64,000 nt of DNA, taken from Luteibacter aegosomatissinici. GTDB taxonomy: Bacteria; Pseudomonadota; Gammaproteobacteria; Xanthomonadales; Rhodanobacteraceae. Below, piece by piece: positions 30,381 to 50,139 of the stretch. Every line of letters starts with the position of its first letter. Position 1 is the stretch's first letter. The notes below the pieces were generated by a model, which did no database searches, was not told the origin of the DNA, and worked only from the letters and a program-made list of their open reading frames with translations. The DNA is taken from positions 2,294,001-2,358,000 of the forward strand of contig NZ_CP095742.1 of NCBI RefSeq assembly GCF_023078495.1, in the 5' to 3' direction. Made by a program: the position numbers and the translations under genes.

Positions 30381-30395
30381 GGAGGTTCCACCTTG
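30381..30395 (+). promoter_or_regulatory. Ribosome site with TTG start for the ceramide-synthase-like gene
   Basis: GGAGGT at 30381-30386 is followed after 6 bases by TTG at 30393-30395. No ATG or GTG at a suitable distance is in frame. A rare start codon with a strong site suggests tuned translation of the first gene of the operon. The 234-bp leader upstream (30159-30392) shows TACAAT at 30274 as the best -10-like element, without a convincing -35. Confidence 0.6.
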
Positions 30396-31535
30396 AGCGC
30401 GTCGGCCTCGCTGCGTGTTGTCCCGGTTGCCAGCAAGGCAGATCTCGGTCAATTCATTAGGGTGCCTGCCACCCTGCTGGGCGATGATCCGAACTGGATC
30501 TCACCCCTGCTTCTTGAACGCACCCTGCATCTCGGTGCAAAAACCAACCCCTGGTTCGAGCATGCCCATCAGCAGGGCTGGCTTGCCTACCGTGGTGACA
30601 AGGTGGTGGGCCGTATCAGCGCGCAGGTGGATGACCTGTACCTGGAGCGCTACGGCGATGCCACCGGCTTCTTCGGTATGTTGGATGCCGAGGACAACCA
30701 GGAAACGTACGACGCGCTGATTGCGACGGCCGAGCAGTGGCTGCGCGAGAAGGGCATCAAGCGCGTGCGCGGCCCCCTGAGCCTGTCGATCAACGACGAA
30801 GTCGGCCTGCTGGTCGATGGCTTCGATACGCCGCCCGTGTTCATGATGGGCCATGCCAAGCCGTATTACGGCGCACGCATTGAGCAGGCCGGTTACACCA
30901 AGGCCAAGGACATGCTGGCCTACATGATCGCGCCGGATTTCCCGGTGCCCAAGGTCATGAACCGCCTGCTGGCGAAGTTCATGCCGCGGATCAAGGTGCG
31001 CCCGCTCGATACCAAGCGTTACACCGAAGAGCTCGCCGTGCTGCGCGATATCTTCAACGACGCCTGGTCCGATAACTGGGGCTTCGTGCCGTTCACCGAG
31101 GCCGAGTTCAAGGACCTGGGTACCAGCCTGAAGCTGCTGGTGGCGTCGGACCTGATCCAGATCGCCGAAGTGGATGGCGTGCCGGCCGCGTTCATCGTGG
31201 CGCTGCCCAACGTCAACGAAGTGATCAAGGGCTTCAACGGCAAGCTCGCTCCGTTCAACTGGGTGAAGCTGCTGTGGGGCCTGAAGAAGCGTTTCCCGAA
31301 GTCGTCGCGCGTACCGTTGATGGGTGTGCGCCGCAGCTTCCACAACACGCCGCTGGGCCCGGGCCTCGCTTTCCTGGTGATCGATGCGGTTCGCCACCAC
31401 CTGGTCGCGCGTGGCGTGAAGCAGGTCGAGCTGTCGTGGATCCTTGAGGACAACGACGGCATGCGCAACATCATCGAGCAGATCGGCGGCCACGATTACA
31501 AGCGGTACCGCGTGTACGAGAGGACCATCGCATGA
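30393..31535 (+). CDS. GNAT-fold N-acyltransferase, probable bacterial ceramide synthase (bCerS-like)
   Basis: A 380-aa protein with no signal peptide. It begins LRVVPVASKADLGQFIRVPA and carries WISPLLLERTLHLG, NPWFEHAHQQGWLAYRGDKV, VGRISAQVDD and VRGPLSLSINDEVGLLVDGF. That string of motifs is typical of the roughly 380-residue GNAT-like family often mislabelled 'dATP pyrophosphohydrolase', to which the Caulobacter bacterial ceramide synthase belongs. The expected reaction is N-acylation of a sphingoid base. Support comes from the complete set of other ceramide genes on the facing operon (42626-46813). It overlaps the pump adaptor gene by 4 bp. Annotated by motif memory, not by alignment. Confidence 0.7.
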   Translation: MSASASLRVVPVASKADLGQFIRVPATLLGDDPNWISPLLLERTLHLGAKTNPWFEHAHQQGWLAYRGDKVVGRISAQVDDLYLERYGDATGFFGMLDAEDNQETYDALIATAEQWLREKGIKRVRGPLSLSINDEVGLLVDGFDTPPVFMMGHAKPYYGARIEQAGYTKAKDMLAYMIAPDFPVPKVMNRLLAKFMPRIKVRPLDTKRYTEELAVLRDIFNDAWSDNWGFVPFTEAEFKDLGTSLKLLVASDLIQIAEVDGVPAAFIVALPNVNEVIKGFNGKLAPFNWVKLLWGLKKRFPKSSRVPLMGVRRSFHNTPLGPGLAFLVIDAVRHHLVARGVKQVELSWILEDNDGMRNIIEQIGGHDYKRYRVYERTIA

Positions 31536-32740
31536 GTCGGCAAGCATCGCGTACGGGGGTGGCGGTGCTTGTGGGCATCGTCGTGATCGGTGGCATCTGG
31601 TGGGTGGCCAAGGGCCCCGGCGGCGGCAAGTCGCAGGCGGACCAGGCTGTGCCGGTCGTCGCCGCCAGCGTGCGCCAGGGCAGCTTCGTGATCTACCGCT
31701 CGCAGCCGGGTACGGTGACGCCTTCCAATAGCGTGCTGGTGCGCAGCCAGGTCGATGGCGTGCTCAAGCGTGTGGACTTTGCCGGTGGCCAGTTGGTGAA
31801 GCAGGGCGACCTGCTGGCCGAGGTGGACCCGCGGCCCCTGCAAGCGCAGGCCCAGCAAGCCGGTGGCGATCTGGCGCGCAGCCAGGCCCAGTTGGCGAAT
31901 GCGCAGGAAGTGCTGAAGCACTACAACGCGCTGCTCGCCCAGGATTCGATCTCGCGCCAGCGCGTGGCTGACCAGGAAGCACTGGTGCGCCAGTACCAGG
32001 CCGAAGTGAAAGCCGGGCAGGGCCGTGCCGATACGGCGCAGCTACAGCTCTCCAGTGGCCGCATTACCTCGCCGATCGACGGCGTGGTCAGCTTGCGCCG
32101 GGTGGATCCGGGCAACCTCGTCGGCCCGGGCGATGCCCGCGGTATCGCCGTGGTCACCCAGTCGCAGCCGAGCAAAGTTGTGTTCTCCGTGCCGGTGAAC
32201 GTGGTGCCGAAGGTGCTCGAGCGCATGCGCGCCGGTACCTGCATTCCGGTGCAGGCGGTGGGCGATGGCCCGGATGACATCCTGGCGACCGGCCATCTCC
32301 TGGCCGCTAATAACCAGGTGGACCCGGCGACGGGCACGGTGAAGTTCGAAGCTACCTTCGCAAATGCGGATAACTCGTTGCTTCCCAATCAGTTTGTGAC
32401 TGCCAAGCTTCCGGTGCAGGTCCTGCCCCAAGCGCTGCTGGTGCCGTCCGCGGCCATCCAGCAAGGCGCCCAGGGCCCCTTCGTCTATGTAGTGAAGGAC
32501 GACAAGACCGCCGATGTGGTGCCGGTGAAAGTGGGCGCCTCGGATGCGACGACCACGGTGGTGACGTCTGGCGTGGTCGCCGGTGCGAAGGTGGTGGTTG
32601 AAGGTGCGGACCGGCTGCGTGCCGGCACGCCGGTCAACGCCACCATGGCGCCGGAGCCGCCCGCGGCCGCCGCGGATTCGGCCGCCTGCCGTGATGGCGA
32701 TGCAGGCGCCACGCCGCAGGCACCGAACGCGCACCCGTGA
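31532..32740 (+). CDS. RND periplasmic adaptor (MdtA-like)
   Basis: A 402-aa membrane-fusion protein. N-terminal anchor GVAVLVGIVVIGGIWWVA, then a split lipoyl domain (VRSQVDGVLKRVDFAGGQLV and GRITSPIDGVVSLRRVDPGN) around a coiled-coil hairpin (DLARSQAQLANAQEVLKHYN), a beta-barrel domain and a membrane-proximal domain. The order and TSPIDGVV match MdtA/MexA-type adaptors. It links the two pump subunits downstream to the outer membrane factor. It overlaps its upstream and downstream genes by 4 bp each, showing tight coupling to the ceramide-synthase-like gene. The tail is Ala/Pro-rich. Confidence 0.92.
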   Translation: MSRQASRTGVAVLVGIVVIGGIWWVAKGPGGGKSQADQAVPVVAASVRQGSFVIYRSQPGTVTPSNSVLVRSQVDGVLKRVDFAGGQLVKQGDLLAEVDPRPLQAQAQQAGGDLARSQAQLANAQEVLKHYNALLAQDSISRQRVADQEALVRQYQAEVKAGQGRADTAQLQLSSGRITSPIDGVVSLRRVDPGNLVGPGDARGIAVVTQSQPSKVVFSVPVNVVPKVLERMRAGTCIPVQAVGDGPDDILATGHLLAANNQVDPATGTVKFEATFANADNSLLPNQFVTAKLPVQVLPQALLVPSAAIQQGAQGPFVYVVKDDKTADVVPVKVGASDATTTVVTSGVVAGAKVVVEGADRLRAGTPVNATMAPEPPAAAADSAACRDGDAGATPQAPNAHP

Positions 32741-35700
32741 ACCCGTCACGTCCCTTCATCCTCCGGCCAGTAGCCACCTCGCTGCTGGCCATCGCGATCC
32801 TGCTCGTTGGCCTGTTTGGCTACCGGTTCCTGTCGCTCTCGGCGTTGCCCGAGGTTGATTTCCCGACCATCGAGGTCGTGACGGCTTACCCGGGGGCGGG
32901 ACCGCAGGTGATGGCATCGACCATCACCTCGCCGCTGGAGCGGCAGCTTGGCCAGATGCCCGGTCTGGCGCAGATGTCTTCGACCAGCGCGGTCGGCACC
33001 TCGACCATCACGCTGCGTTTTGAACTGGCGCTGCCGCTCGACGTGGCCGAGCAGGAAGTTCAGGCCGCGATCAACGCCGCCTCGCCCGGTTTGCCCGCCG
33101 ATATCGCGCACCCGCCGATCTACCGCAAGGTGAACCCGGCGGATACGCCGGTGATGACCCTGGCGCTGACGTCGCCGACCCTGTCGCTGCGCGCGCTGCG
33201 CGAACTGGCCGACACACGCCTCGTGCCCAAGCTCTCGCAGGTGACGGGCGTCGGCCTGGTGAGCCTGGATGGCGGCCAGCAGCCGGCCGTCGTGGTGCGG
33301 GCCGATCCCGTTCGCCTGCGCTCGCATGGGCTCACCCTGGATGACGTACGCAACGCCATTCGCGATGCAAATTCGAACCAGGCAAAGGGCTCGCTGGAGA
33401 GTGCGAACCGTTCCTCCGAGATCGCGATCAGCGAGCCGGTAGATAGTCCGGAAGCGTTCGAGCGGTTGACCGTGGCCCATCGCGACGGCGCCGTCGTGCG
33501 CCTGGGTGATGTCGCGCACGTGGCCGAGGGCGCGGAAAATTCGCGCCTTGGCGCGTGGTCGAACGACAAGCCGGCCATCATCCTGCGCATTCGTCGCCAG
33601 CCCGGCGCGAACGTGGTCGAAGTGGTCGATCGCGTCCGCCAGCTGCTGCCCGCGCTGCAGTCGACGCTGCCGGCCGCCGCCGATATCGCCACGCTTTCCG
33701 ACCGTACCGAATCGGTGCGCGCCGCCGTGCACGATGTGCAGGTGGAGCTGGTATTCGCCGTGATCCTGGTCGTGCTGGTGATCTTCCTGTTCCTGGGCAG
33801 TGGCACCGCCACGATCATCCCGGGTGTGGTCGTGCCGCTCTCGCTGATCGGCACGTTCGCGGTGATGTACCTCGCAGGGTTCTCGATCAACAACCTCACG
33901 CTCATGGCGCTGATCGTGGCGACCGGCTTCATGGTCGACGATGCGATCGTGATGATCGAGAACATTGCGCGCTATATCGAAGCGGGCGAGCGCCCGCTGG
34001 CGGCGGCGCTGAAAGGCTCGCGCCAGATCGCCTTCACCGTGGTGTCGCTGACCGTCTCGCTGGTGGCCGTGCTGATCCCGCTGCTGTTCATGGGCGGCCT
34101 GGTGGGCCGTTTGTTCCGCGAGTTCGCGGTGACCCTGGCCGTGGCGATCCTCATCTCCGGCGTGGTCTCGCTGACCCTCACGCCCATGATGTGCGCACGC
34201 ATGCTGCGCAAGGTCCCTGAGCAGCGGCAGAGCGCGTTTTCGCGTCGTGGCAAGGCGTGGCTCGATCGCGTGCTGGCATCGTATGCACGTGGGCTCGAGT
34301 GGGTGCTCGAACGGCAGCGGCTCACGCTGGCCGGCGTCGGCCTCATGATGGTTCTCGCTGTCGTGCTTTACGTCGTTATTCCGCGCGGCCTGTTCCCAGC
34401 GCAGGATTCCGGCGATATCCAGGGCATCTCCGAAGCCCCGGCGTCGATCTCGTTCTCCGCGATGGGCGAGCGCCAGCAGGCCCTGGTAAAGGCCATTTCG
34501 GCCGACCCGGATGTGGCTAGCGTGGCGTCGTCGATCGGCGTGGGTGAGGGCGGTACGACCCTCAACAGCGGCCAGTTGCTCATTCATCTGAAGCCGCTGG
34601 CGCACCGCGACCGTGCACCGAAGGTCATGGCGCGCCTGGCCGAGGCCGCCGCGAAGGTGCAGGGTATCCGCCTGTACATGCAGCCGGTGCCCGACCTGAC
34701 CATCGATGACCGCATCAGCCGCGGCCAATACCAGTTCTCGGTCGCCAGCACCGATCCCGCCCAGCTCGGCGCGTGGGTATCGCGCGCGGCGGATCCGCTG
34801 CGTGATTCGCGCAAGCTCGTGGATGTGGCCAGCGACCAGCAGAACCACGGCGTGGAGGCGTACATCAACGTCGACCACGACATGGCCAACCGCTACGGCG
34901 TGACCTCCGCCGCAGTCGGTGATGCACTGTACAACGCCTTCGGCCAGCGCCAGGTCGGTACGCTGCTTACCTCGGGCAGCCCGCGCCGGGTGATCCTTGA
35001 AGCGAAGGAAACCGGTGGCGATGCGGCGGACGCGATGAGCGGTGTTTACCTGGCCGGGCAGGGCGCGCCCGCGAACAGCGATGCCGATCCGAACGATCCC
35101 TCGTCGTCGCTCATCCCGCTTGCTTCGTTCGCGACGGTGAGCGAGCGTGCCGCGCCGCTGCTGGTTACCCGTATCGACCAGCTGCCGGCCGCCACCGTGT
35201 CGTTTAACCTCGCCCCGGGCGTGGCGCTGGGCACGGCCATGCATGAGATCGACAAGGCGCACGCGGCGCTGAACCTGCCGGCCAGCGCGCAGGTGAAGTG
35301 GGAAGGCTCCGCAGAGGCGTTCCGGGTCTCGCGTGAAGGCCAGGCGTGGCTGATCCTGGCCACGCTGATCACCGTGTACATCGTGCTGGGCGTGCTCTAC
35401 GAGAGCTACATCCACCCGCTTACGATCCTCTCCACGCTGCCTTCCGCCGGTATCGGCGCGTTGCTGGCCTTGCTGATCGGCGGCTTCGAGCTGGATGTGA
35501 TCTCGTTGATCGGCGTGATCCTGCTGATCGGCATCGTGCAGAAGAACGCGATCATGCTGATCGACTTCGCGGTGGAGGCGCAGCGCAACGACAAGCTCAG
35601 CGCCCGCGACGCCATCGTGCAGGCCTGCATGCTGCGCTTCCGTCCCATCCTGATGACGACCCTGGCAGCGATGCTCGGTGCGTTGCCGCTGATGCTGGGC

Positions 35701-35847
35701 GGCGGCATGGGCGCGGAGCTGCGCCACCCGCTGGGCGTGGGCATCTTCTGGGGCCTGGCGGTGAGCCAGGTGCTGACCCTGTTCACGACGCCGGTGATCT
35801 ACCTGGCGTTCGAGCGCGTGTTCCTGGCACGCGGCCAGCGCGCCTGA
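32737..35847 (+). CDS. RND efflux pump subunit, MdtB-like
   Basis: A 1036-aa inner-membrane pump starting at GTG in a GTGA overlap. Start PSRPFILRPVATSLLAIAIL, two large periplasmic loops, 12 membrane helices. The proton relay is intact: Asp-Asp in TGFMVDDAIVMIENI (helix 4) and Lys in GIVQKNAIMLIDFAV (helix 10). It forms with the next gene a two-subunit system like MdtBC, whose heterotrimer exports bile salts, novobiocin and other amphiphiles. Here, being in one operon with a lipid N-acyltransferase, a lipid or lipid-derived substrate is plausible but unproven. Confidence 0.93.
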   Translation: MNPSRPFILRPVATSLLAIAILLVGLFGYRFLSLSALPEVDFPTIEVVTAYPGAGPQVMASTITSPLERQLGQMPGLAQMSSTSAVGTSTITLRFELALPLDVAEQEVQAAINAASPGLPADIAHPPIYRKVNPADTPVMTLALTSPTLSLRALRELADTRLVPKLSQVTGVGLVSLDGGQQPAVVVRADPVRLRSHGLTLDDVRNAIRDANSNQAKGSLESANRSSEIAISEPVDSPEAFERLTVAHRDGAVVRLGDVAHVAEGAENSRLGAWSNDKPAIILRIRRQPGANVVEVVDRVRQLLPALQSTLPAAADIATLSDRTESVRAAVHDVQVELVFAVILVVLVIFLFLGSGTATIIPGVVVPLSLIGTFAVMYLAGFSINNLTLMALIVATGFMVDDAIVMIENIARYIEAGERPLAAALKGSRQIAFTVVSLTVSLVAVLIPLLFMGGLVGRLFREFAVTLAVAILISGVVSLTLTPMMCARMLRKVPEQRQSAFSRRGKAWLDRVLASYARGLEWVLERQRLTLAGVGLMMVLAVVLYVVIPRGLFPAQDSGDIQGISEAPASISFSAMGERQQALVKAISADPDVASVASSIGVGEGGTTLNSGQLLIHLKPLAHRDRAPKVMARLAEAAAKVQGIRLYMQPVPDLTIDDRISRGQYQFSVASTDPAQLGAWVSRAADPLRDSRKLVDVASDQQNHGVEAYINVDHDMANRYGVTSAAVGDALYNAFGQRQVGTLLTSGSPRRVILEAKETGGDAADAMSGVYLAGQGAPANSDADPNDPSSSLIPLASFATVSERAAPLLVTRIDQLPAATVSFNLAPGVALGTAMHEIDKAHAALNLPASAQVKWEGSAEAFRVSREGQAWLILATLITVYIVLGVLYESYIHPLTILSTLPSAGIGALLALLIGGFELDVISLIGVILLIGIVQKNAIMLIDFAVEAQRNDKLSARDAIVQACMLRFRPILMTTLAAMLGALPLMLGGGMGAELRHPLGVGIFWGLAVSQVLTLFTTPVIYLAFERVFLARGQRA

Positions 35848-35857
35848 GCCCGTCGGT

Positions 35858-38800
35858 ATGAACATCTCGCGGCCCTTCATCGACCGACCGGTAGCGACCT
35901 CGCTGCTGTGCCTCGGGCTCGTGATCGCCGGTGCGCTCGCATGGCGGCTGCTGCCGATCGCCTCCATGCCGGAGGTGAACGTGCCGACCATCAAGGTCTC
36001 GGCCGAGCTGCCCGGTGCCAGCCCGGCAACGATGGTCAATGCGGTGGCGGCGCCGCTTGAGCGCACGCTCGGCCGCGTATCCGGCCTGACCGAGATGACC
36101 TCGGTCAGTGCGAACGGCACGACGGATATCCGCCTGGCGTTCGACCTGTCGCGTGACGTGGTCGGCGCCTCGCGCGATGTGCAGGCCGCCATCAACGCGG
36201 CGCGCGGCGAGCTGCCCCCCGAGATGCCGGCCAGCCCGAGCTACCGCGAGGTGAGCTCGGCGGATGCGCCGGTGCTGGTGCTGGGCCTGACCTCGAAACA
36301 CGCCACGCCGGGCCAGATGTACGCCGTGGCCTCCACGACGTTCAGCCAGACGCTGTCGCAGGTGGATGGCGTGGGCGATGTGGAGCTGGTGGGCAGCTCC
36401 ATACCCGCGTTGCGGATCGAACTGGATCCGCAGGCGATGAACGCGCATGGCGTCAGCTTCGACCAGGTCCGCCGCGCCGTCTCGGCCGCACTGCCGAATG
36501 CGCCGCTGGGCGCCATCGAGTTCGGCGACCGTTACCTGCAGGTGGCCGCGAACGCGCAGGTGGATTCGGCTGCGACGCTTAGTGCGCTCACGGTGGCGCA
36601 TGACGGCGGCGGCAGCGTGCACCTGGGCGATATCGGGCGCGTCGTCGATTCCGTGCGCGAACCGTCGAACGCCGCACTGGCCAACGGCGAGCCAGCGGTG
36701 TTGGCCCTGGTGCGGCACAAGCCGGGCGCGAACATCATCGAAGTGATCGATGGCATCACCGATCGCCTGCCGGCCTTGCGGGCATCGCTGCCCGGCGATA
36801 TGCAGGTGAGTGTCATCGTCGATCGCGCCACCACCGTGCGCGCCTCCCTGCACGCCGCCGAACACACCCTGGCCCTGGCCGTGGTGCTGGTGGTCGTGGT
36901 GATGCTGCTGTTCCTGCGCGACCTGCGCACGGCCCTGATCGCCAGCGCCGTGGCACCGATCTCGCTGGTCGGCGCTATGATCGTCATGTATTTCCTCGGC
37001 TATAGCCTGGATATCCTCTCGCTGATGGCGCTGACCATCGCGGTGGGTTTCACCGTGGATGATGCCGTGGTGGTCGTGGAGAACATCGCCCGCCATATCG
37101 AGGAAGGCATGCCGCCCCGTGAGGCAGCGTATGTTGGCGCGGGCGAGGTGGGACTCACGGTGCTGTCGATGAGCGCCGTGCTGATCGCCGTGTTCATCCC
37201 GCTGCTGCTGATGGGCGGTTACGTGGGCCTGTTCGTGCGCGAGTTCTCGGTCACGATCGCCACCGTCATCGCCATTTCGCTGGTCGTGTCGCTTACCGTC
37301 GTGCCCATGTTGTGCGCCTTCTGGCTGAAACCGGCCCGCGCCGATCGCGAGCATGGCGCCATCTTCCGCTGGACCGAACGGCATTTCGTTGCATTGCAGG
37401 GCGCCTACGACCGTAGCCTGACCTGGGCGCTGCGCCGCGCACCGCTCACCATGCTCTCGCTGCTCGGCGTGCTGTGCCTGAGCGTCGTGCTGTTTATCGT
37501 GGTGCCCAAGGGCTTCTTCCCGCGCCAGGATACGGGTGAGCTGACGGGCGATTTCGATACCGATGGCAGTGCCTCGTTCGCGGTATCGAAGGAGAAGCTG
37601 GGCGCGTTCCTGGCCATCGTGCGTGCCGATCCTGCCGTGGAAAGCGCGGCGGGTTATGCCGAAGACGATTCGGGCTCGTTGTTCGTCACGCTTAAGCCGT
37701 TGTCGAAGCGCGATGCGAGCGCCGACCAGGTGGCGGCGCGCCTGAATGTCCAGCTGGCGAAGCTGCCGGGCGGCGTGTTCACGGTCACCTCGGTGCAGAA
37801 CATCCGCGTGGGTGGCCGCCGTAGCCGTGCCTCGGATGAGTACACCATCCAGGCGGATTCACCGGAGCTGCTGCGCCGCTGGGTGCCGCCCATCGTGGAA
37901 GGCATGATGCGCCTGCCGGAGCTGCGCAACGTGCACGGCGATAACGGCCGCAAGGGCGTGGCGACCGCGCTGAGCGTGGATCGAGATGCCGCGGCGCAGG
38001 CGGGCACCAGCTATGCCCGCATCGACGGCGTGCTACGCGATGCCTTCGCCGACCGTCGCGTGGCGACGATGTTCTCGCCCACCGGCGAGTACCCGGTGCT
38101 GATGCGCGTGGCGCCCGAGCAGGCGCAATCGCCCGATGCATTCGCACCCATCCAGGTGCCTGTTACGGGCGGCGCCGGCGTACCGTTGCTCGGCCTGACC
38201 CAGGTGCGCCAGTACCAGGTGCCGCTCTCGATCTCGCATTACGGCCAGAACGTGGCCACCACGATTTCGTTCGACCGCGTGCCGGGTGTTTCGCTTTCCA
38301 AGGCAACCCAGGCGATCCAGAAAGTGATGGATAGCCTCGCCGTGCCGACCTCGGTGCGCAGCACCTTCCAGGGCGCGGCCGGTGCGGCGCGCCAGGTCTC
38401 CGACAGCGAGCCGGCGCTCATCCTTGGCGCGGTGCTTACGTTGTTTATCGTGCTGGGCATCCTGTACGAAAGCGTGGTGCATCCGCTGACCATTCTCTCG
38501 ACGCTGCCTTCGGCGGCAGTGGGCGCCGTGTTCGCCCTGATGGCGCTGCGTACCGACCTCGACGTGATCGCCCTGGTCGGCATCTTCTCGCTGGTCGGCA
38601 TCGTCATGAAGAACGCGATCATGATGGTCGATGTGGCGATCGTCGCGGGGCGTACGATGGGGATGACCCCGTCCGAGGCTATCCAGCATGCGTGCCGCCT
38701 GCGTTTCCGCCCCATTCTCATGACCTCGCTCGCGGTGATGGTGGCGGCGGTGCCGCTGGCCATATCGCGCGGCAACGGCGCCGAAATGCACCGCCCGCTA

Positions 38801-38977
38801 GGCATTGCGATCGGCGGCGGCCTGGTGGTCAGCCAGTTGCTGACCCTCTATACCACCCCCGTGGTTTACCTTTATCTCGACCGTTTCAGCAGGTGGGCTG
38901 GCAGATGGATGCAAAGATTCGGCGGCCAGGACCGCGACGCGGCATGGCCGGCGCAGTACGAGGAGCCGCTCCCGTGA
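35858..38977 (+). CDS. RND efflux pump subunit, MdtC-like
   Basis: A 1039-aa paralogue of the preceding subunit, 10 bp downstream. Start ISRPFIDRPVATSLLCLGLV. The helix 4 acidic pair is in VGFTVDDAVVVVENI and the helix 10 Lys in GIVMKNAIMMVDVA, so both subunits keep proton-translocating residues. Two adjacent non-identical subunits are typical of MdtB/MdtC and MuxB/MuxC systems. Its stop codon overlaps the GTG start of the outer membrane factor. The two subunits are diverged enough that a recent duplication is unlikely. Confidence 0.92.
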   Translation: MNISRPFIDRPVATSLLCLGLVIAGALAWRLLPIASMPEVNVPTIKVSAELPGASPATMVNAVAAPLERTLGRVSGLTEMTSVSANGTTDIRLAFDLSRDVVGASRDVQAAINAARGELPPEMPASPSYREVSSADAPVLVLGLTSKHATPGQMYAVASTTFSQTLSQVDGVGDVELVGSSIPALRIELDPQAMNAHGVSFDQVRRAVSAALPNAPLGAIEFGDRYLQVAANAQVDSAATLSALTVAHDGGGSVHLGDIGRVVDSVREPSNAALANGEPAVLALVRHKPGANIIEVIDGITDRLPALRASLPGDMQVSVIVDRATTVRASLHAAEHTLALAVVLVVVVMLLFLRDLRTALIASAVAPISLVGAMIVMYFLGYSLDILSLMALTIAVGFTVDDAVVVVENIARHIEEGMPPREAAYVGAGEVGLTVLSMSAVLIAVFIPLLLMGGYVGLFVREFSVTIATVIAISLVVSLTVVPMLCAFWLKPARADREHGAIFRWTERHFVALQGAYDRSLTWALRRAPLTMLSLLGVLCLSVVLFIVVPKGFFPRQDTGELTGDFDTDGSASFAVSKEKLGAFLAIVRADPAVESAAGYAEDDSGSLFVTLKPLSKRDASADQVAARLNVQLAKLPGGVFTVTSVQNIRVGGRRSRASDEYTIQADSPELLRRWVPPIVEGMMRLPELRNVHGDNGRKGVATALSVDRDAAAQAGTSYARIDGVLRDAFADRRVATMFSPTGEYPVLMRVAPEQAQSPDAFAPIQVPVTGGAGVPLLGLTQVRQYQVPLSISHYGQNVATTISFDRVPGVSLSKATQAIQKVMDSLAVPTSVRSTFQGAAGAARQVSDSEPALILGAVLTLFIVLGILYESVVHPLTILSTLPSAAVGAVFALMALRTDLDVIALVGIFSLVGIVMKNAIMMVDVAIVAGRTMGMTPSEAIQHACRLRFRPILMTSLAVMVAAVPLAISRGNGAEMHRPLGIAIGGGLVVSQLLTLYTTPVVYLYLDRFSRWAGRWMQRFGGQDRDAAWPAQYEEPLP

Positions 38978-40350: not shown

Positions 40351-40386
40351 GCTTTCGGTGGCGCGGGCTCGCCGCGCCTCGTTAGC

Positions 40387-40412
40387 GGTTCATTCGCTTC
40401 AGCGAATGAACC
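40387..40412. terminator. Bidirectional hairpin between convergent operons
   Basis: GGTTCATTCGCT (40387-40398) pairs with AGCGAATGAACC (40401-40412), a near-perfect stem with a tiny loop. It sits between the pump operon (ending 40350) and the end of the ceramide operon (40440). There is no long T-run, so activity as terminator is likely but not certain. Confidence 0.6.
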
Positions 40413-40439
40413 GATCCGTTGGCCTAACGCAACAGCGGC

Positions 40440-42610: not shown

Positions 42611-42625
42611 GCCGCGACTATCCGC

Positions 42626-43825: not shown

Positions 43826-44076
43826 GCGTTCTGGCCCAGTGTCTTGCTGACCAGCTCGGCCAGCTCACCGACGGTACGGATGTCCGCCAGGGCGTTGATC
43901 GGCACGGAGACGTCGTATTCGTCTTCCACGGCCATGATCAGGTCCATGACCTTGAGCGAATCAAAGCCAAGATCGGCGGTGATGCCGGTCGATGCGCTGA
44001 TGGGCTTGGCGAGGGGTACTTCGATCAACGGATTGATCAACTCGATAAGCCGGGAAACGATGTCGGATGGGTTCAC
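43822..44076 (-). CDS. acpR: Acyl carrier protein of the sphingolipid operon
   Basis: An 84-aa acidic four-helix protein with the phosphopantetheine Ser40 in DLGFDSLKVMDLI, and helix III/IV ADIRTVGELAELVSKTL. It differs from housekeeping AcpP (it lacks DSLDTVELVM), so it is a dedicated carrier. It overlaps the SPT-like gene by 4 bp and the CerR-like gene by 4 bp. In Caulobacter the equivalent ACP carries the acyl chain to Spt. The symbol follows that precedent and depends on the cluster assignment. Confidence 0.85.
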   Translation of the reverse strand: MNPSDIVSRLIELINPLIEVPLAKPISASTGITADLGFDSLKVMDLIMAVEDEYDVSVPINALADIRTVGELAELVSKTLGQNA

Positions 44077-45056
44077 GAGGGAACTCCTGTAACTGCTTGA
44101 GGGGAGAGTCCCAGCGTCTCGGCCAGGCCGCGATCGAAGCTTATCGCAGGGCGCCAGCCAGTGTCTTGGGAAAACGCGTGGCTGTCTGCCGACCAGTCCG
44201 CATGAGTGACTTCACGTACCTTGCCGGGCGAGAGCATCGGGGCGTAACCGAAGACGCGCGCAGCCATGAGATTGGTGCGGCCAACAAAGCGAAGCACCGG
44301 CACCGGGATGGCCAGCCGGCGGATGGGCGCGCCACCGCGCAGCACGCGGGCGGCGGTGCCGAGTACGGTCGGCCAGTCGTAACCGCCGTGGCCGTCATCC
44401 AGTTCGTACGTAGCGCCCACGCCACGGCCGCTATCCAGCCAGGCCACGACGGCGCTAGCCAGGTCGGCAACGTGGATCATCGAGAAGCGGCCGTTGCCAT
44501 CGCCGGGGATGGCCGCCACGCCGCGGGCCATGCCGCGGAACATGGGCAGCATCTCCTTGTCGCCGGGGCCGTAGACGGCAGGCGGGCGAATGATGGTCCA
44601 GGTCATGCGCTGCGCCCCGGCCTGCAGGGCCAGCTCGCCGCGGCGCTTGCTGCCGGCGTAATCGGAAAGCTGCGCTTCACGCGCGGCCAGTGACGAGATC
44701 AGCAGGAAGCGGCGCACCGAGGGTTCGTTCTCGGCGGCGCGCACGATATCGACGACACCGGCCTCGTTCACGCGATCGAAATCGGCCCGGCTCGCGCCAC
44801 GCACACTACCGGCGCAGTGGATCACCGCGTCTGCACCCTTCACCAGCTCCGCCAATGCATCGCGATCGGCGAGGTCACCGGCCACCCACTTCAGGCCATC
44901 GGCGCACTGCATCACGCGCCCGCGGCGCGGACGGTAAAGCGCACGCACCCGATAGCCGGCGGCCATCAGGTGGGTGCGTAAGGCGTGGCCAATAAATCCC
45001 GTCGCGCCCGTCAGGGCGACGACTGGCCGCCCCTCATGGACGGGATCGTCGTTCAC
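44073..45056 (-). CDS. cerR: NAD-dependent epimerase/dehydratase, probable ceramide reductase (CerR-like)
   Basis: A 327-aa extended SDR. TGATGFIG at residues 16-23, Tyr-Lys pair in DYAGSKRRGELAL, and IRPPAVYGPGDKEMLPMFRG, as in UDP-sugar epimerase-like proteins. No sugar-nucleotide pathway lies nearby. In Caulobacter the epimerase-like gene in the same position reduces the 3-keto group of the sphingoid intermediate. The operon order ligase-reductase-ACP-SPT is reproduced here with 4-bp overlaps throughout. The call rests on synteny plus family. Confidence 0.78.
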   Translation of the reverse strand: MNDDPVHEGRPVVALTGATGFIGHALRTHLMAAGYRVRALYRPRRGRVMQCADGLKWVAGDLADRDALAELVKGADAVIHCAGSVRGASRADFDRVNEAGVVDIVRAAENEPSVRRFLLISSLAAREAQLSDYAGSKRRGELALQAGAQRMTWTIIRPPAVYGPGDKEMLPMFRGMARGVAAIPGDGNGRFSMIHVADLASAVVAWLDSGRGVGATYELDDGHGGYDWPTVLGTAARVLRGGAPIRRLAIPVPVLRFVGRTNLMAARVFGYAPMLSPGKVREVTHADWSADSHAFSQDTGWRPAISFDRGLAETLGLSPQAVTGVPS

Positions 45057-46813
45057 GAGGCGACAGCTTCGAGAACCTGCTCCTGTTCGCGGCGTTCCAG
45101 GTAACCGCGGCGCGTCGCGGAACGCGACAGCTTGCCGGAGGACGTGCGCGGGAGCGTGTGCCGGGGCACCAGCTCGATAAGGCAGGTAATGCCGAGCTCT
45201 TCCAACAGGTCACGGCGGATGCGGTGCATGAGCGCTTCGCGCGCGGCGAGGTCCAGCGTGGTGCACTGGACGACCACCACCGGCACTTCGGCGCCGCCCG
45301 GGCCCGGCACGCTGAATGCGGAGGCATCCTGCGAGCGGAGTTCCGCCTGGCGTTCGACGATGTGCTCGATATCCTGCGGCCAGATGTTGCGGCCGTTGAC
45401 GATGATCATGTCCTTGTGGCGACCGGTCACGACCACTTCGCCTTCGACGATGTAGCCGATATCACCCGTATCGAGCCAGCCATCGCTGCCCAGTACTTCG
45501 GCGGTGACGCCCGGCTGCTGGAAATAGCCCGACATGACGCTCGGGCCGCGGACCATGATCCGGCCGACATGCTTGTCGGCAAGGTGGTTGCCGGCATCAT
45601 CCCAGACTTCCATCTCGTGGCCGGGGAGGGCGCCGCCGCAACGGACAAAGCCGCTGCCCGTGCCCTCGGCGACCGGTACGGCGATCAGGTTTTCCGACAG
45701 CTCATCCGAATCGATCCACTCAACCACGATGCCCTTGCCGACCGGCGAGAAGCTGACGGCGAGCGAGGCTTCGGCCATGCCGTACGACGGCACGAGCGCA
45801 CGCGCATCGAAGCCTGCCGGTGCGAGCATTTCGGCAAAGCGGGCCGGCACGGCCGGATGGATCGGCTCGGCGCCGATGCCGGCGACGCGCCAGTGCGAGA
45901 GGTCGTACGCGGCGATATCCGACGGGCGCACGCGACGCGCGCACATGTCGTAACCGAACGGCGGGCTATAGGCGATCGTGGCCTTCGACTGGCTCATCAG
46001 CTCCAGCCAGCGGCGCGGACGCATCGCGAATTCGCGCGTATCGAGGTAATCGATGGAGCGCTGCGCGGCCATCACGGTAAGCAGGCAACCGACCAGGCCC
46101 ATGTCGTGATAGAACGGCAGCCACGAGACAAAGCGGTCGTCTTCACGCAGGTTCAGGCCGGGGCCGCTCGAACCCTGCAGGTTCGCCATCAGGGCGTGGC
46201 CCGGGATCATGGCGGCCTTAGGGGTGCCCGTGCTGCCCGAGGTGAACTGCAGGTAGGCGATTTCATCGGCCATCAGCGGCTTCAGCTCGCCATCCTGGCG
46301 GGCCAGCGCATCGAACTCGGCCGGCGTGCCCCACATGGCGATCGGAAGGCCCTGCACGGCTTCGCCGAGCATGCCGCGGAACGCTTCGGAGGCGACGGCG
46401 ATCGAGGCACCCGAGGCCTGCAGCATGCCGTTGAGCTTATGCACGAACGCGTCGTGGCCGCCCAGGTTCACCGACGAGGGCAGGGCCACCGGCACGAGGC
46501 CAGCGTATTGGCAGGCAAAGAAGAAACGCAGGAAATCGGCGTTGGTCTCGGCGACGATCGCAAGGCGCGATCCACGCGGCAGGGCCAGCGTCGCAAGGCG
46601 CTGCGCAAGTTCCACCGCCTGCTTGCGCAAGGTTCGGTAGGGGAGCGCGGTGGCCAGTTTGCCGCCTGCGTAGAAATTTGCCCCGGTAACGCCCGCGGCC
46701 GCATAGTCCAGCGCCTCTGCCAGGGTGGCAAAGTCGCCGTGACGCAGCGGTACCGTGTTTACGGTAGGGGTCGCGGCCCCGGGTTCGATTGAAAGATTTC
46801 CGTCTGCACTCAT
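45053..46813 (-). CDS. acsR: Fatty acyl-AMP ligase / acyl-ACP synthetase of the sphingolipid operon
   Basis: The start MSADGNLSIEPGAATPTVNT at 46811-46813 gives 586 aa; 60 further upstream codons have unlikely composition and run through the promoter region. ANL-superfamily adenylate-forming enzyme: P-loop YLQFTSGSTGTPKAAMIPG, SYGMAEASLAVSF, DTGDIGYI and RHKDMIIVNGRNIWPQDIE. Residues match FAAL-type enzymes that load acyl-AMP onto ACP rather than CoA. It probably charges the neighbouring ACP for SPT. It is the first gene of the operon; a 10-bp palindrome lies 80 bp upstream. Confidence 0.85.
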   Translation of the reverse strand: MSADGNLSIEPGAATPTVNTVPLRHGDFATLAEALDYAAAGVTGANFYAGGKLATALPYRTLRKQAVELAQRLATLALPRGSRLAIVAETNADFLRFFFACQYAGLVPVALPSSVNLGGHDAFVHKLNGMLQASGASIAVASEAFRGMLGEAVQGLPIAMWGTPAEFDALARQDGELKPLMADEIAYLQFTSGSTGTPKAAMIPGHALMANLQGSSGPGLNLREDDRFVSWLPFYHDMGLVGCLLTVMAAQRSIDYLDTREFAMRPRRWLELMSQSKATIAYSPPFGYDMCARRVRPSDIAAYDLSHWRVAGIGAEPIHPAVPARFAEMLAPAGFDARALVPSYGMAEASLAVSFSPVGKGIVVEWIDSDELSENLIAVPVAEGTGSGFVRCGGALPGHEMEVWDDAGNHLADKHVGRIMVRGPSVMSGYFQQPGVTAEVLGSDGWLDTGDIGYIVEGEVVVTGRHKDMIIVNGRNIWPQDIEHIVERQAELRSQDASAFSVPGPGGAEVPVVVVQCTTLDLAAREALMHRIRRDLLEELGITCLIELVPRHTLPRTSSGKLSRSATRRGYLERREQEQVLEAVAS

Positions 46814-47054
46814 GGTTTTATTTAACTCACCAGCGAGTTGCGCACCCCAGGGGAACATCCCCATAGCCCGTGCGAACAGGTAACTGTACCGAATGGTACC
46901 ATATTTCAAGGTTGTTAAGAAAATCCTCAGAGCGGGTGACAGAATGCTCCGGTTTTCGTTTACATGCCACGTGTCTTTTTGCAGGGACTTCACATTTCCC
47001 TGCCGGAATCGCTTACGAACGGCCTTAGAGCGGGCTTAGCCCGCCCTCGAAACC
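46814..47054 (-). promoter_or_regulatory. Promoter region of the sphingolipid operon
   Basis: AT-rich relative to its surroundings. A perfect palindrome ATGGTACCAT lies at 46893-46902, inside a candidate sigma-70 promoter on the minus strand (TTGAAA, 15-17 bp, then TACAGT/CAGTTA). The overlap suggests repressor control. A GC hairpin (GCGGGC-TTA-GCCCGC, 47030-47044) just after the hydroxylase stop may end the upstream transcript. The promoter call is by eye. Confidence 0.5.
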
Positions 47055-47816
47055 TTAACTTCGTCGGACTCTCTGGCGGTTCCAGTTCGCCAGATTCTTG
47101 ATGGGCGCACGAACGTACGGGCTAGCCTGGATCAGGCGGAAGATGATTCCGTTGAAGAAGGTGCCCAGGCGGTCCATGGGGCGGTCGATATCGATGAACA
47201 GCACGGCGCGGAGCTCGTCGGTGTCGTTGTGCACCTCGTGCTCGTAGGTGTCGTCGAACAGGACGACCTTGCCTTCTTCCCAGTGCAGGATCTGGTCATC
47301 GACCCGGATCCAGACGTTTTTCGAATCTGCCGGTACCTTGAGACCCAGGTGGGCGCGGATCACCGCGCGGGTCGGGCCATGGTGGGCGGCGATGCGGTAG
47401 CGCGGCTGCAGGATCGAGAACATGGCGCTGCGCATGCCGGGCAGGGTATCCAGCACGGCGGCGGTACGCGGGCACAGGGCGCAGTTCTCGTCCGAGCGGT
47501 TGCCGTAGACGTAAAAGCCAAACGTCTTCCAGTTATCGCCCTTGGAGATGCGCTTCTGGTCCGGCGAGAGCTGGTGGAACGAGGGAATATCTTCCGGATG
47601 CTCGAGCAGGTGATCGAGCTCGGCGCGAATCTCCGGCCACGCGGCTTCCAATTGGGGCACCCACGCGAACTCACTGTTCGCGATAACAGGTGTCGAGGGC
47701 ACGAGCGAGTGCTTCGCCTGGAAGCGGCCGCTCCAGCGCAGGAAGCGCTTGCCGCCCTTGATCAGGACTCGTCGCCACAGGGGCGCCGTGGCGGCTTTGG
47801 ATGCAATGGTATTCAC
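47055..47816 (-). CDS. LpxO-like Fe(II)/2-oxoglutarate lipid hydroxylase (aspartyl beta-hydroxylase family)
   Basis: A 253-aa protein of the Asp/Asn beta-hydroxylase family. Metal and co-substrate residues are in YRIAAHHGPTRAVIRAHLGL and YEHEVHNDTDELRAVLFIDI (His and Arg), with GDNWKTFGFYVYG and CALCPRTAAVL upstream. N-terminal basic helix (RRVLIKGGKRFLRWSG) and a C-terminal hydrophobic stretch (LGTFFNGIIFRLI) suggest membrane association. LpxO relatives 2-hydroxylate acyl chains of lipid A. Next to ceramide genes, 2-hydroxylation of a ceramide or its acyl chain is a reasonable guess. It overlaps the kinase gene by 4 bp. Confidence 0.82.
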   Translation of the reverse strand: MNTIASKAATAPLWRRVLIKGGKRFLRWSGRFQAKHSLVPSTPVIANSEFAWVPQLEAAWPEIRAELDHLLEHPEDIPSFHQLSPDQKRISKGDNWKTFGFYVYGNRSDENCALCPRTAAVLDTLPGMRSAMFSILQPRYRIAAHHGPTRAVIRAHLGLKVPADSKNVWIRVDDQILHWEEGKVVLFDDTYEHEVHNDTDELRAVLFIDIDRPMDRLGTFFNGIIFRLIQASPYVRAPIKNLANWNRQRVRRS

Positions 47817-48586
47817 GACTGCGATTCACCTGCGGTGGCGTTGCCTCGGATCGCGCTCATGGCGCGAGCCAACACATCGGTGTAAGGCGCCCGGGAATCA
47901 AGGTCTACGATGGTCGAATCGTTGTATTGGAGTTTCGACATGATCGCGATCTTGTCGTTCAGCTCCGCCACGTTGTGATCCGGCTTGCGCGCGTAGGCCG
48001 TGGCCAGGTCGATATCGAGCCGGATGATGAGCGTGGGCTTGTACTCGGCCATGCGCTCATACAGGCGCTGCTCACGAACGGCCAGCTTGCGTACGAGCCA
48101 GTTCTTGCTGCGATTCACGCCGAGGCCCGGGCCGTCGTAACGAAACCCGGTGACTTCGGCCTGCGGGTAGCGGTCGCTGATGACGAGCACACCGCTGTTT
48201 GCCAGGCGCCACACGCGCTTCAGGTGACGCGCGCGCCACAGCGAGAAGCCGTACATGATCAGCGAGCCGATCACGCCCGGCAATTTGTTCTTCGTATCCT
48301 GGGCCTTGTCTGCCTTCGCGGCGAGGCGGCGCTCCAGGCGCGGCCCGATGATCGGCAGTTCCTTGATCTTCGCGCCCTGCTCACCGGAGATGAGACCGAG
48401 GTAGCGGCGCTCGACCGGGCCGAAGGCGCGCAGGTGCTTCACCAGGTCGTGCGTGATGGTGGACTTGCCGGTGCCATCGCAGCCGACGACAGCGACCAGG
48501 CCGCTCACCAGTGGCGTCTTGATCTTCGCTGCCGGTGCCTTGGTGGTGGACTGGACATCAGCCATGCGGGCGGCCTGCGCGGTCAT
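47813..48586 (-). CDS. Thymidylate-kinase-like P-loop kinase 1
   Basis: The start at 48584-48586 (MTAQAARMADVQ) sits in an ATGA overlap with kinase 2; 257 aa. Walker A VGCDGTGKSTI, LID/base region ISDRYPQAEVTGFRYDGPG with the DRY/F motif of thymidylate kinases, and the C-terminal ARKPDH shared by all three paralogues. dTMP kinases are about 210 aa and single-copy, and this family diverges from them, so a nucleotide substrate is doubtful. The operon context suggests phosphorylation of a lipid head group; unproven. Confidence 0.8.
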   Translation of the reverse strand: MTAQAARMADVQSTTKAPAAKIKTPLVSGLVAVVGCDGTGKSTITHDLVKHLRAFGPVERRYLGLISGEQGAKIKELPIIGPRLERRLAAKADKAQDTKNKLPGVIGSLIMYGFSLWRARHLKRVWRLANSGVLVISDRYPQAEVTGFRYDGPGLGVNRSKNWLVRKLAVREQRLYERMAEYKPTLIIRLDIDLATAYARKPDHNVAELNDKIAIMSKLQYNDSTIVDLDSRAPYTDVLARAMSAIRGNATAGESQS

Positions 48587-49284
48587 GCGCCGGCCACCTG
48601 CAGTGCGGCCGTGACGGCGCGCATCGACGACTCGAGCACATGGTCCGCGGCATCGCGGCCATCCAGGTCGAGGATGGCGGCACCGTTGAAATGCAGGTGC
48701 GGGATGGCGGCGATCTTCTCGCGCAGCGATGCGATCTTGTGATCGGGCTTGCGCGCGTGTGCCGTTTCCACATCGACGTTGAGGCGGATTACCAGCAAGG
48801 GGACGTGCGTAGCCATCCACTCGTACAGCCGATGCTCACGCTGGCGGAGCATGCGCACCCACCAGTTGCCGCCTTCGGTTTTCGCCAGCTGCGGGCCATC
48901 GATGCTGAAGCCCGGCTTTTCCGCCTGCGGAAAGCGATCGGTCACCACCAGGGTGCCGCGCCGGGCCATGGCCAGCAGGCGGCGGAACTTGAACGCGCGC
49001 CAGCGCGACAGCAGGTAAATGGCCAGCGCCGTCACATTGCCCGGCGGCTTGCCCGGCTGGTCGTGCACCTTGTCCGACTTGCGCACCAGGTACGCCTTGA
49101 AGCGCGGGCCAATGACCGGCAGCGTGCCGATCCAGTCGCCGATCTTGCCGGAGGACTGGCCAAGATAAAGCTGCTCGACGGGCGCGACCGTACGCAGCCG
49201 AGCCACGAGAGACGTGGCCAGCGTCGATTTGCCGGAACCGTCGGAGCCGGTCAGGGCGATAACGGGTAACGGCTTCATTGACAT
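48583..49284 (-). CDS. Thymidylate-kinase-like P-loop kinase 2
   Basis: Start MSMKPLPVIALTGSDGSGKS at 49282-49284; 233 aa. It has Walker A TGSDGSGKST, VVTDRFPQAEKPGFSIDGPQ, VIRLNVDVETAHARKPDH and the closing segment AAILDLDGRDA that aligns with the other two kinases. It is the first gene of the three-gene unit kinase 2 - kinase 1 - hydroxylase, all overlapping. It is divergent from kinase 3, so the three kinases meet at one promoter region. No membrane segment. Confidence 0.8.
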   Translation of the reverse strand: MSMKPLPVIALTGSDGSGKSTLATSLVARLRTVAPVEQLYLGQSSGKIGDWIGTLPVIGPRFKAYLVRKSDKVHDQPGKPPGNVTALAIYLLSRWRAFKFRRLLAMARRGTLVVTDRFPQAEKPGFSIDGPQLAKTEGGNWWVRMLRQREHRLYEWMATHVPLLVIRLNVDVETAHARKPDHKIASLREKIAAIPHLHFNGAAILDLDGRDAADHVLESSMRAVTAALQVAGA

Positions 49285-49392
49285 AGGCTTATCAGAAAGG
49301 GGGAGCACACCAGCGGCCCGGTAGCGCAATATAATGACGATGTTATGACGCTATATATTGTCGCGTCCACTAGAATATAACCCCCCTTTCAC
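49285..49392. promoter_or_regulatory. AT-rich divergent promoter between kinase genes
   Basis: 108 bp, the most AT-rich segment near the locus. It holds an inverted repeat CAATATA (49327-49333) with TATATTG (49354-49360), and -10-like TATATT/TATAAC elements on both strands. Kinase 3 begins only about 13 bases after the last one. No strong ribosome site precedes either start. Confidence 0.55.
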
Positions 49393-50139
49393 ATGAAATT
49401 GTCGATAAATACCGTGTCACAAAACGGCAATAATCTCGCTCCCCTCATCGCGATCATCGGCACGGATGGTTCTGGCAAGTCCACCGTGGCCGAGCACATG
49501 GTCGGCTGGATCGGCCGTTTTGGCCCCGCAGGCCAGGCTCACCTGGGCAAGCAGGCCGGCAATATTGGCCGCGCACTGGCCGAGCTTCCGCTTATTGGTG
49601 GTTATCTCGGTCGTTTGATCCGGAAGAAATCCGATGGCGTGAACAAGCGCATCGACGAGCACAAACAGCCCACGCTGTTCCCGTCGCTGGTCATCGCCGG
49701 CTTCACCTTGCGCCGAATCCGCCGCTTCAAGCGCATGCTGGCCATGCGCCGGAAGGGCCTGATCGTGGTGACGGATCGATTCCCGCAGGTGGAGATCACC
49801 GGCGCATACGATGGCCCGGGGTTCCCTGAAACCTCGCAGGGCTCCTGGCTGGTGTTGCGCCTGGCGAAGTTCGAACACGACAGCTTCCAGTGGATGGCCA
49901 GCTACAAGCCAGACCTGGTGCTGCGTCTCAACGTTGACCTGGATACGGCCTGCGCACGCAAGCCCGACCACCGCCGCGAAGCGCTGGCCCGGAAGATCGC
50001 GGTAACGCCGCTGCTGAAATACAGCGGTGCCCCCATCGTGGATATCGATGCGAGCCAACCGCTGGCCACCGTCATCCGCCAGGCCGAAGAAGCCGTGACA
50101 CAGGTCATGCACGCCCGCGGCTACGCCAACGCCGCCTGA
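49393..50139 (+). CDS. Thymidylate-kinase-like P-loop kinase 3
   Basis: A 248-aa paralogue of kinases 1 and 2 on the opposite strand. Walker A IIGTDGSGKSTV at 22-32, VVTDRFPQVEITGAYDGPG, VLRLNVDLDTACARKPDHR, and GAPIVDIDASQPL. The three proteins share the same motif order, including the unusual ARKPDH, so they arose by duplication. Their divergence is high enough that they may differ in substrate or be non-redundant steps. It ends 20 bp from the convergent desaturase stop. Confidence 0.8.
   Translation: MKLSINTVSQNGNNLAPLIAIIGTDGSGKSTVAEHMVGWIGRFGPAGQAHLGKQAGNIGRALAELPLIGGYLGRLIRKKSDGVNKRIDEHKQPTLFPSLVIAGFTLRRIRRFKRMLAMRRKGLIVVTDRFPQVEITGAYDGPGFPETSQGSWLVLRLAKFEHDSFQWMASYKPDLVLRLNVDLDTACARKPDHRREALARKIAVTPLLKYSGAPIVDIDASQPLATVIRQAEEAVTQVMHARGYANAA

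What the first reader, a model, noticed from the sequence alone, without database searches (positions are those of the whole stretch)
30393..50139. Complete-looking bacterial sphingolipid locus with its own export and head-group genes
Seen: overlapping genes for acyl-AMP ligase, epimerase-like reductase, ACP and alpha-oxoamine synthase in the order known from the Caulobacter spt cluster, plus a GNAT-fold protein of the bacterial ceramide synthase type on the facing operon. Established: Spt, ACP, acyl-ACP synthetase, CerR and bCerS make ceramide in Caulobacter. Inference: this organism makes ceramides, and the flippase, hydroxylase, three kinases and RND pump modify and move them. I know no description of a locus combining all these parts.
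Basis: partly seen in the sequence, partly recalled or inferred. Interest (0 to 1): 0.85.

Follow-up and report, generated by a model that had tools for sequence, protein, structure and literature searches.

The report
Sphingolipid locus with uncharacterised kinase–flippase module
A soil bacterium carries a compact set of fifteen genes that very probably makes ceramide-type lipids and moves them outward; ten of them, including three unstudied kinases, a flippase and an unstudied helical protein, have counterparts in one locus of E. coli B, and remnants of that locus are unexplained genes of the laboratory strain E. coli K-12.

Summary
It holds a serine palmitoyltransferase (619 bits, NCBIfam SPT cut-off 500), acyl-ACP ligase, ACP, reductase and ceramide-synthase-type GNAT. 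Ten of fifteen genes are one-to-one relatives (45-65% identity) of the E. coli BL21 yghO-aasR-epi-acpR-spt...yghQ-yghR-yghS/yghT locus, so the core is known and "no description" is only partly right. I found no description of the accessory module: two or three thymidylate-kinase-fold kinases, a MOP-type flippase and a CHAD-like helical protein. In 197 family genomes SPT and the CHAD-like gene occur in the same ten; across the class SPT usually lacks it. In Enterobacterales module and spt genes stay together through several gene orders beside LptF/LptG/YtfJ; in Rhodanobacteraceae an MdtABC-like RND pump takes that place (11 of 11 loci). Best reading: kinases build a phosphorylated ceramide head, the flippase turns it over, Lpt2 or RND carries it outward. 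The chemistry is untested. K-12 keeps yghR/S/T and a shortened yghQ beside an IS5. The neighbouring desaturase is not a fixed part, though an optional link remains possible.

The parts
30393..31535 (+). bacterial ceramide synthase-type GNAT (bCerS/Aca; relative of E. coli YghO)
   Evidence: 49% identity to BL21 YghO over 374 aa; Pfam GNAT; only match at E<=0.001 in own genome
31532..32740 (+). RND periplasmic adaptor, MdtA/MuxA-like
   Evidence: NCBIfam PRK11556 313.5 bits (cut-off 391 not reached), TIGR01730 219 > 94.9
32737..35847 (+). RND permease, MdtB/MuxB-like
   Evidence: PRK10503 1361.5 (cut-off 1584 not reached); relatives of 73% identity or more only in the locus-positive genomes tested
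35858..38977 (+). RND permease, MdtC-like
   Evidence: PRK10614 1142 (cut-off 1774 not reached)
38974..40350 (+). outer-membrane efflux factor (NodT family); start GTG 38974 chosen for its 4-bp overlap
   Evidence: TIGR01845 323 > 210; candidate starts
40440..41276 (-). CHAD-like helical protein (ORPH), relative of the unnamed BL21 protein ECD_RS14865
41276..42610 (-). MOP-type flippase, relative of E. coli YghQ
   Evidence: 65% identity; Pfam Polysacc_synt 36.6 > 28.2
42626..43825 (-). serine palmitoyltransferase (Spt)
   Evidence: NF047599 618.8 > 500; PDB 2x8u 439 bits; tree
43822..44076 (-). specialised acyl carrier protein (AcpR)
   Evidence: Pfam PP-binding; 47% over 49 aa to BL21 acpR
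44073..45056 (-). SDR reductase (CerR/epi)
   Evidence: 46% to BL21 epi
45053..46993 (-). fatty acyl-AMP ligase / acyl-AcpR synthetase (AasR); actual start may be 46813
   Evidence: NF006624 749 > 600; 45% to BL21 aasR, matching from residue 83
47055..47816 (-). lipid acyl hydroxylase of the OlsC/LpxO kind
   Evidence: Pfam Asp_Arg_Hydrox 178 bits; NCBIfam OlsC 226 and LpxO 123, both below cut-off
47813..48586 (-). P-loop kinase, R type (YghR relative)
   Evidence: 56% identity; R clade
48583..49329 (-). TMK-fold P-loop kinase, S type (YghS relative)
49393..50139 (+). P-loop kinase, T type (YghT relative), divergent
   Evidence: 56% identity; T clade

Best explanation
A phosphosphingolipid synthesis-and-export cassette. 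AasR loads a fatty acid on AcpR, Spt condenses it with serine, bCerS N-acylates and CerR reduces, giving dihydroceramide (steps established for relatives in Caulobacter and, for Spt/AcpR/AasR, tested in E. coli B). The OlsC/LpxO-like enzyme 2-hydroxylates an acyl chain (inferred). The TMK-fold kinases phosphorylate the ceramide head (inferred); the CHAD-like protein grips the phosphorylated head or phosphate donor and the flippase turns the lipid to the periplasmic leaflet (inferred). The MdtABC-like RND pump carries it onward, in the place that LptF2/LptG2/YtfJ hold in Enterobacterales (inferred from gene replacement).
For: SPT identity. Ten one-to-one relatives of the BL21 locus. SPT and the CHAD-like gene occur in the same 10 of 197 family genomes, neither in 187 (Fisher 5e-17, not corrected for kinship). 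Module kept with spt through several gene orders: 38 of 48 Enterobacterales-type loci hold all 13 genes within the stretch. 14 genes together in 10 of 10 relatives. P-loop kept in 181 of 182 kinases of at least 200 aa, DR[YF]PQ in 174, lid motif in 174 (summed; 10 shorter ones dropped). The one DAGK_cat protein is also in 9 of 10 SPT-lacking genus mates, so it does not look like a dedicated ceramide kinase. BL21 LptF2 finds one distant relative in the genome. Dedicated RND: 73% or more in 7 of 7 locus-positive genomes tested (own included), 52% at most in 10 of 10 negatives.
Confidence: 0.6

Rival explanations
1. Ceramide is made here, but the kinase-flippase-CHAD module acts on another envelope molecule (polyphosphate, lipid A or a glycan) and is only co-selected with sphingolipids.
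For: MOP flippases usually move lipid-linked glycans (recalled); CHAD domains bind inorganic polyphosphate (PMC6537752, abstract and passages); a gene that I read by eye as a glycosyltransferase recurs in 5 of 24 alphaproteobacterial-type loci (no family search); most SPT genomes of the class draw lack the module.
Against: No glycosyltransferase among the window's fifteen genes or annotated inside the BL21 locus; strict co-occurrence with SPT in the family; flippase starts 15 bp after spt in the same operon.
Confidence: 0.22
2. The RND pump is an ordinary multidrug or detergent pump that shares an operon with the ceramide synthase by chance and moves no sphingolipid.
For: Closest families are MdtABC multidrug pumps; none of the 48 Enterobacterales-type loci shows it.
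Against: Overlaps the ceramide synthase gene; kept in 11 of 11 loci including the window; its close orthologue was found only in the locus-positive genomes tested.
Confidence: 0.35
3. Head group is ceramide phosphoglycerate as in Caulobacter, made by CpgABCD relatives elsewhere in the genome; the local kinases do something else.
For: CPG genes occur in some gammaproteobacteria (PMC11324152, sections 8 part 1 and 9).
Against: The only DAGK_cat (CpgB superfamily) protein found is shared by most genomes tested irrespective of SPT: 9 of 10 without, 8 of 10 with (own and one other-genus genome counted). CpgA, C and D were not searched because I had no sequences.
Confidence: 0.08
4. The oxoamine synthase makes a non-ceramide amino ketone (signal or antibiotic precursor).
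For: The fold is shared by BioF, KBL, CqsA and others.
Against: Passes the SPT equivalog cut-off; accompanied by AcpR, AasR, CerR and bCerS; the 58% identical E. [quoted passage not shown]
Confidence: 0.04

Closest known systems
E. coli BL21(DE3) yghO-aasR-epi-acpR-spt / lptG-lptF-ytfJ-hyp-yghQ-yghR-yghS / yghT locus (NC_012971.2, 2989282-3002257)
   Same: Ten genes one-to-one at 45-65% identity; same kinase trio with the third divergent; spt core gene order identical; CHAD-like gene follows the flippase.
   Different: E. coli has LptF2, LptG2 and YtfJ and no hydroxylase there; the window has an MdtABC-like RND pump and an OlsC/LpxO-like hydroxylase. In the parts of PMC9386255 that I read only the five ceramide genes are treated.
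Caulobacter crescentus CC_1168-CC_1152 phosphosphingolipid region
   Same: aasR-cerR-acpR-spt order, cerS nearby, a potential flippase (CC_1166) and transport genes (PMC11324152 sections 8 part 1 and 9).
   Different: Caulobacter uses a ceramide kinase of another family (CpgB/CC_1160; PMC10331486 abstract and section 7) and CPG genes with LptC2/F2/G2; no TMK-like kinase trio is named in the sections read. Relation of CC_1166 to YghQ not tested (no sequence).
CHAD domains (PF05235), polyphosphate-binding
   Same: Predicted fold of the helical protein aligns best with CHAD entries over 205-229 residues.
   Different: Sequence below the Pfam cut-off; binding of polyphosphate untested.
Thymidylate kinases
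   Different: NCBIfam dTMP kinase scores 18.8-21.9 against cut-off 83; the dTMP kinase names in RefSeq for YghS/YghT look like over-annotation.
MdtABC/MuxABC RND pumps
   Same: Adaptor and two different permeases.
   Different: Below the equivalog cut-offs; followed by its own outer-membrane factor and coupled to bCerS.

Membership tests
Rhodobacterial SPT | Sequence above a curated SPT equivalog cut-off | tested here: met
   NF047599 618.8 > 500
Rhodobacterial SPT | Groups with SPTs, not with BioF/KBL | tested here: met
   43 SPT rows against 7 paralogs, SH-aLRT 96; quick tree, long paralog branches, paralogs not typed; bioF and KBL models below cut-off
Rhodobacterial SPT | acpR immediately upstream and aasR nearby | tested here: met
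   Coordinates and identities
Rhodobacterial SPT | Forms 3-oxo-sphinganine | not testable with these tools
   Tested for the E. coli relative only (PMC9386255 passages)
E. coli ygh-type sphingolipid locus | Spt core plus YghQ, YghR, YghS, YghT and the helical protein | tested here: met
   Ten one-to-one best matches
E. coli ygh-type sphingolipid locus | LptF2/LptG2/YtfJ in the locus | tested here: not met
   Not matched in 5 of 5 Rhodanobacteraceae loci; no such gene among the window's fifteen; one distant LptF-like gene elsewhere in the genome
Caulobacter CPG pathway | Dedicated CpgB-type ceramide kinase | tested here: inconclusive
   One DAGK_cat protein, shared by genomes with and without SPT; no CpgB sequence to compare
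dTMP kinase | TIGR00041 cut-off (83.25 bits) | tested here: not met
   18.8-21.9 bits for the three kinases
CHAD | PF05235 above gathering cut-off | tested here: not met
   No CHAD match for the window protein; 4 of 44 family members at E<=1, best 6.2e-4; two relatives 14-15 bits against 25.6, and P0110, named CHAD by UniRef, no match
CHAD | Tandem four-helix-bundle fold | tested here: inconclusive
OlsC / LpxO | NCBIfam equivalog cut-offs | tested here: not met
   226 of 450 and 123 of 500; Pfam family PF05118 met
MdtABC/MuxABC | NCBIfam equivalog cut-offs | tested here: not met
   1361 of 1584, 1142 of 1774, 313 of 391; general RND adaptor family met

The most novel reading that the evidence does not exclude
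The module makes and exports a ceramide bearing a di- or oligophosphate head: the two ancient kinase types (T, and the R/S type that split later) act in sequence, since enzymes of the NMP-kinase fold commonly phosphorylate a phosphate (recalled), and the CHAD-like protein holds the phosphate chain for the flippase. This would be a new lipid class, a new job for a CHAD fold, and the function of the unexplained E. coli genes yghQ, yghR, yghS and yghT.
Probability: 0.15. Interest if true: 0.85.

Novelty: new variant of a known kind. Interest (0 to 1): 0.6.

Why it matters
It gives a testable function to orphan genes of the best-studied bacterium: yghR, yghS, yghT and the shortened yghQ of K-12 look like the remainder of a sphingolipid locus whose spt gene is covered to 80% or more in 4047 of 5426 complete E. 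coli genomes (cover is not intactness). It points to a second head-group/export module beside the Caulobacter CPG genes, and to a natural swap of the outward transporter (Lpt2-type in Enterobacterales, RND-type in Rhodanobacteraceae), which makes the open question of how bacterial sphingolipids reach the outer membrane testable by gene removal.

Tried and rejected
Desaturase and ferredoxin reductase at 50159-52359 as fixed locus members: not supported. A close desaturase relative (E<=1e-100) is in 4 of 6 locus-positive and 1 of 10 locus-negative genomes tested; in one positive (G489) it lies over a million bases away, in three (G507, G379, G539) within about 11 kb. So it is not a conserved member, but an optional link is not excluded; a DesA-family enzyme is reported to hydroxylate the sphingolipid acyl chain in Caulobacter (PMC11324152 section 9). 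Phospholipase C on the left: found in one of the nine regions fetched from locus-positive relatives (G379), at the other end of the locus; the left side of G507 was barely fetched. Empty-site comparison: failed; the region of a locus-negative genus mate (G469) shares few neighbouring genes with the window. CHAD by sequence: hhalign against E. coli YgiF gave nothing. Foldseek alone gave no match at E<=0.001 for the helical protein, a CHAD chain ranking 15th with E 1.1. dTMP kinase function: rejected on score. Sequence search of the S kinase against PDB chains gave only weak P-loop matches. RNA families in 28000-53000: none at gathering score. Literature: one search listed four papers holding two or more of yghQ/R/S/T, none on sphingolipids by title; I read passages of one (PMC9278758, a knockout table). 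(11 papers) named no such module in titles or the abstract starts shown. Searches returned large, mostly off-topic lists (1,927, 563 and 592 papers; 20, 15 and 10 shown) and weigh little. The 26-of-26 SPT result is weak, since Sphingomonadales conserve SPT anyway (PMC13028669 abstract passage). All 78 loci were found through the CHAD-like gene, so its presence there is by construction. One search fetched the wrong BL21 stretch; it served only for YgiF.
Full report
1. What is there. The window lies in a 4,994,364-bp single-contig genome. Between 30393 and 50139 are fifteen genes in two converging operons plus one divergent gene. Pfam gives GNAT, RND adaptor domains, two ACR_tran permeases, OEP, a protein without a family, Polysacc_synt, Aminotran_1_2, PP-binding, Epimerase, AMP-binding, Asp_Arg_Hydrox and three proteins with at most a sub-threshold Thymidylate_kin match.

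2. The ceramide core. The oxoamine synthase passes one NCBIfam SPT equivalog (NF047599, 618.8, cut-off 500; two other SPT models are below theirs) and the ligase passes the FAAL model (749, cut-off 600). Its best solved relatives are SPTs (439 bits; KBL 229; a BioF/KBL-type enzyme 203). In a quick tree 43 SPT rows lie on one side of a branch (SH-aLRT 96) and seven paralogs, three of them from this genome, on the other; the paralogs were not typed and their branches are long. The genome has one such SPT, with three paralogs at 221 bits or less, and one GNAT of this type.

3. Same system in E. coli. BL21(DE3) carries yghO, then FAAL-SDR-ACP-spt, then lptG, lptF, a YtfJ-like gene, an unnamed protein, a flippase, yghR and yghS, and a divergent yghT. 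Ten window proteins pair one-to-one with these: GNAT 49, CHAD-like 50, flippase 65, SPT 58, ACP 47 (over 49 aa), SDR 46, FAAL 45, R kinase 56, S kinase 60, T kinase 56%. PMC9386255 (section 13 and passages) reports the five ceramide genes of BL21 and tests its SPT, AcpR and AasR; the rest of the locus is not treated in the parts I read. In K-12 an IS5 lies between yghO and a shortened yghQ; FAAL to spt, lptFG, the YtfJ-like and the unnamed gene are not annotated there, while yghR, yghS and yghT remain. In 5426 complete E. coli genomes DNA like yghQ-yghT is covered to 80% or more in 4560, spt in 4047 and the CHAD-like gene in 4083. Cover is not intactness, and the overlap of these sets was not computed.

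4. The accessory module. A scan of named genomes with the CHAD-like family gave 78 loci: 5 Rhodanobacteraceae, 48 Enterobacterales-type (one labelled Martelella alba) and 25 others, mostly Sphingomonadales and Acetobacteraceae by title (grouping mine). All 5 Rhodanobacteraceae loci have the window's gene order, two with a doubled CHAD-like hit. Of the 48 Enterobacterales-type loci 41 hold all ten shared genes and 38 also YtfJ, LptF and LptG, in several different orders; some of the rest are cut by contig ends, and L053 and L059 show no other module gene and lie in genomes that, by title, have a second locus with the full set. In the 25 others a flippase and a T-like kinase are in the same stretch in 23 each, and SPT in none. 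I searched 26 genomes for SPT: those of 23 of these loci (the other two, L078 and L081, come by title from genomes already included) and of three contig-cut Enterobacterales loci; 26 of 26 have SPT at 403 bits or more, next paralog 225 or less. In 321 evenly drawn class genomes 17 have SPT at 420 bits or more and two near 295; the CHAD-like gene is in one, the window's own (Fisher 0.053 for the 17). In 197 family genomes both are in the same ten, nine of the genus (of 19 listed) and one outside it. So the module implies SPT in what I saw, not the reverse.

7. Unit and transporter. Flanks: in six of the nine no flanking window gene is matched above 50% identity; G507, G379 and G539 share some neighbours. 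The first RND permease has relatives at 73% or more only in the seven locus-positive genomes tested, own included; ten negatives reach 52% at most. BL21 LptF2 finds one distant relative (22%) in the genome, but this search also missed the expected LptG. No Rhodanobacteraceae locus shows LptF/G and no Enterobacterales-type locus shows an RND gene. A swap of transporter is the simplest reading.

8. Mechanism. From papers on relatives: AasR, AcpR and Spt chemistry (PMC9386255); bCerS and CerR in Caulobacter (PMC11087976 abstract and discussion); Lpt2-type transport proposed, not tested, in Caulobacter (PMC11324152). Inferred here: hydroxylation, head phosphorylation, flipping, RND export. My estimates: ceramide core works 0.93; module acts on the sphingolipid 0.75; kinases phosphorylate ceramide or its phosphate 0.5; RND exports it 0.5.

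9. Novelty. The core is known; the combination is a variant. The kinase-flippase-CHAD-like module as a sphingolipid partner was not found in print in my searches (also 63, 64, 95, which were poorly targeted) of an open-licence library; two key papers were not held.

Noticed in passing
L006:5044-10824 (NC_000913.3): E. coli K-12 MG1655 has an IS5 between yghO and a shortened yghQ, with yghR, yghS and yghT kept; compared with BL21 the spt core, lptFG, a YtfJ-like and the CHAD-like gene are not annotated there.
   Followed up: partly
E. coli genomes records: spt is covered to 80% or more in 4047 of 5426 complete E. coli genomes; the paper read mentions only E. coli B and an ETEC strain in the passages seen.
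   Followed up: partly
L008:15679-17258: YghS and YghT are named dTMP kinase in RefSeq; the window relatives score about 20 bits against a cut-off of 83.
   Followed up: yes
P0002, P0159 (contig of 4,875,246 bases, same length as that of G379): Proteins deposited as Bacillus sp. NP157 seem to belong to a genome of the window's own genus; the record appears misnamed.
   Followed up: partly
L060: Record titled Martelella alba BGMRC 2031 carries an Enterobacterales-type locus; the species label looks doubtful.
   Followed up: no
L048, L062 and others, about 4.8-7.0 kb: In 15 of 24 alphaproteobacterial-type loci a gene read by eye as a response regulator recurs, and in 14 one read as a sensor kinase, on the strand opposite to the kinase genes in the example seen; no family search was done.
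   Followed up: no
window 50159-52359: Fatty-acid desaturase and ferredoxin reductase pair; a close desaturase is in 4 of 6 locus-positive and 1 of 10 locus-negative genomes tested, in three of them within about 11 kb of the locus: an optional sphingolipid link is possible.
   Followed up: partly
G435, G516, G542 (L119, L120, L122, L129-L131): The CHAD-like gene is duplicated in tandem in three locus-positive relatives; lone second copies occur in Pluralibacter (L053, L059).
   Followed up: no
window 17479-20526: Large two-component-propeller (Reg_prop, Y_Y_Y) histidine kinase.
   Followed up: no
window 26559-30158: Phospholipase C-type phosphoesterase and a SUKH-type protein just left of the locus; the phosphoesterase was found in one of nine regions of locus-positive relatives, at the other end of the locus.
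   Followed up: partly
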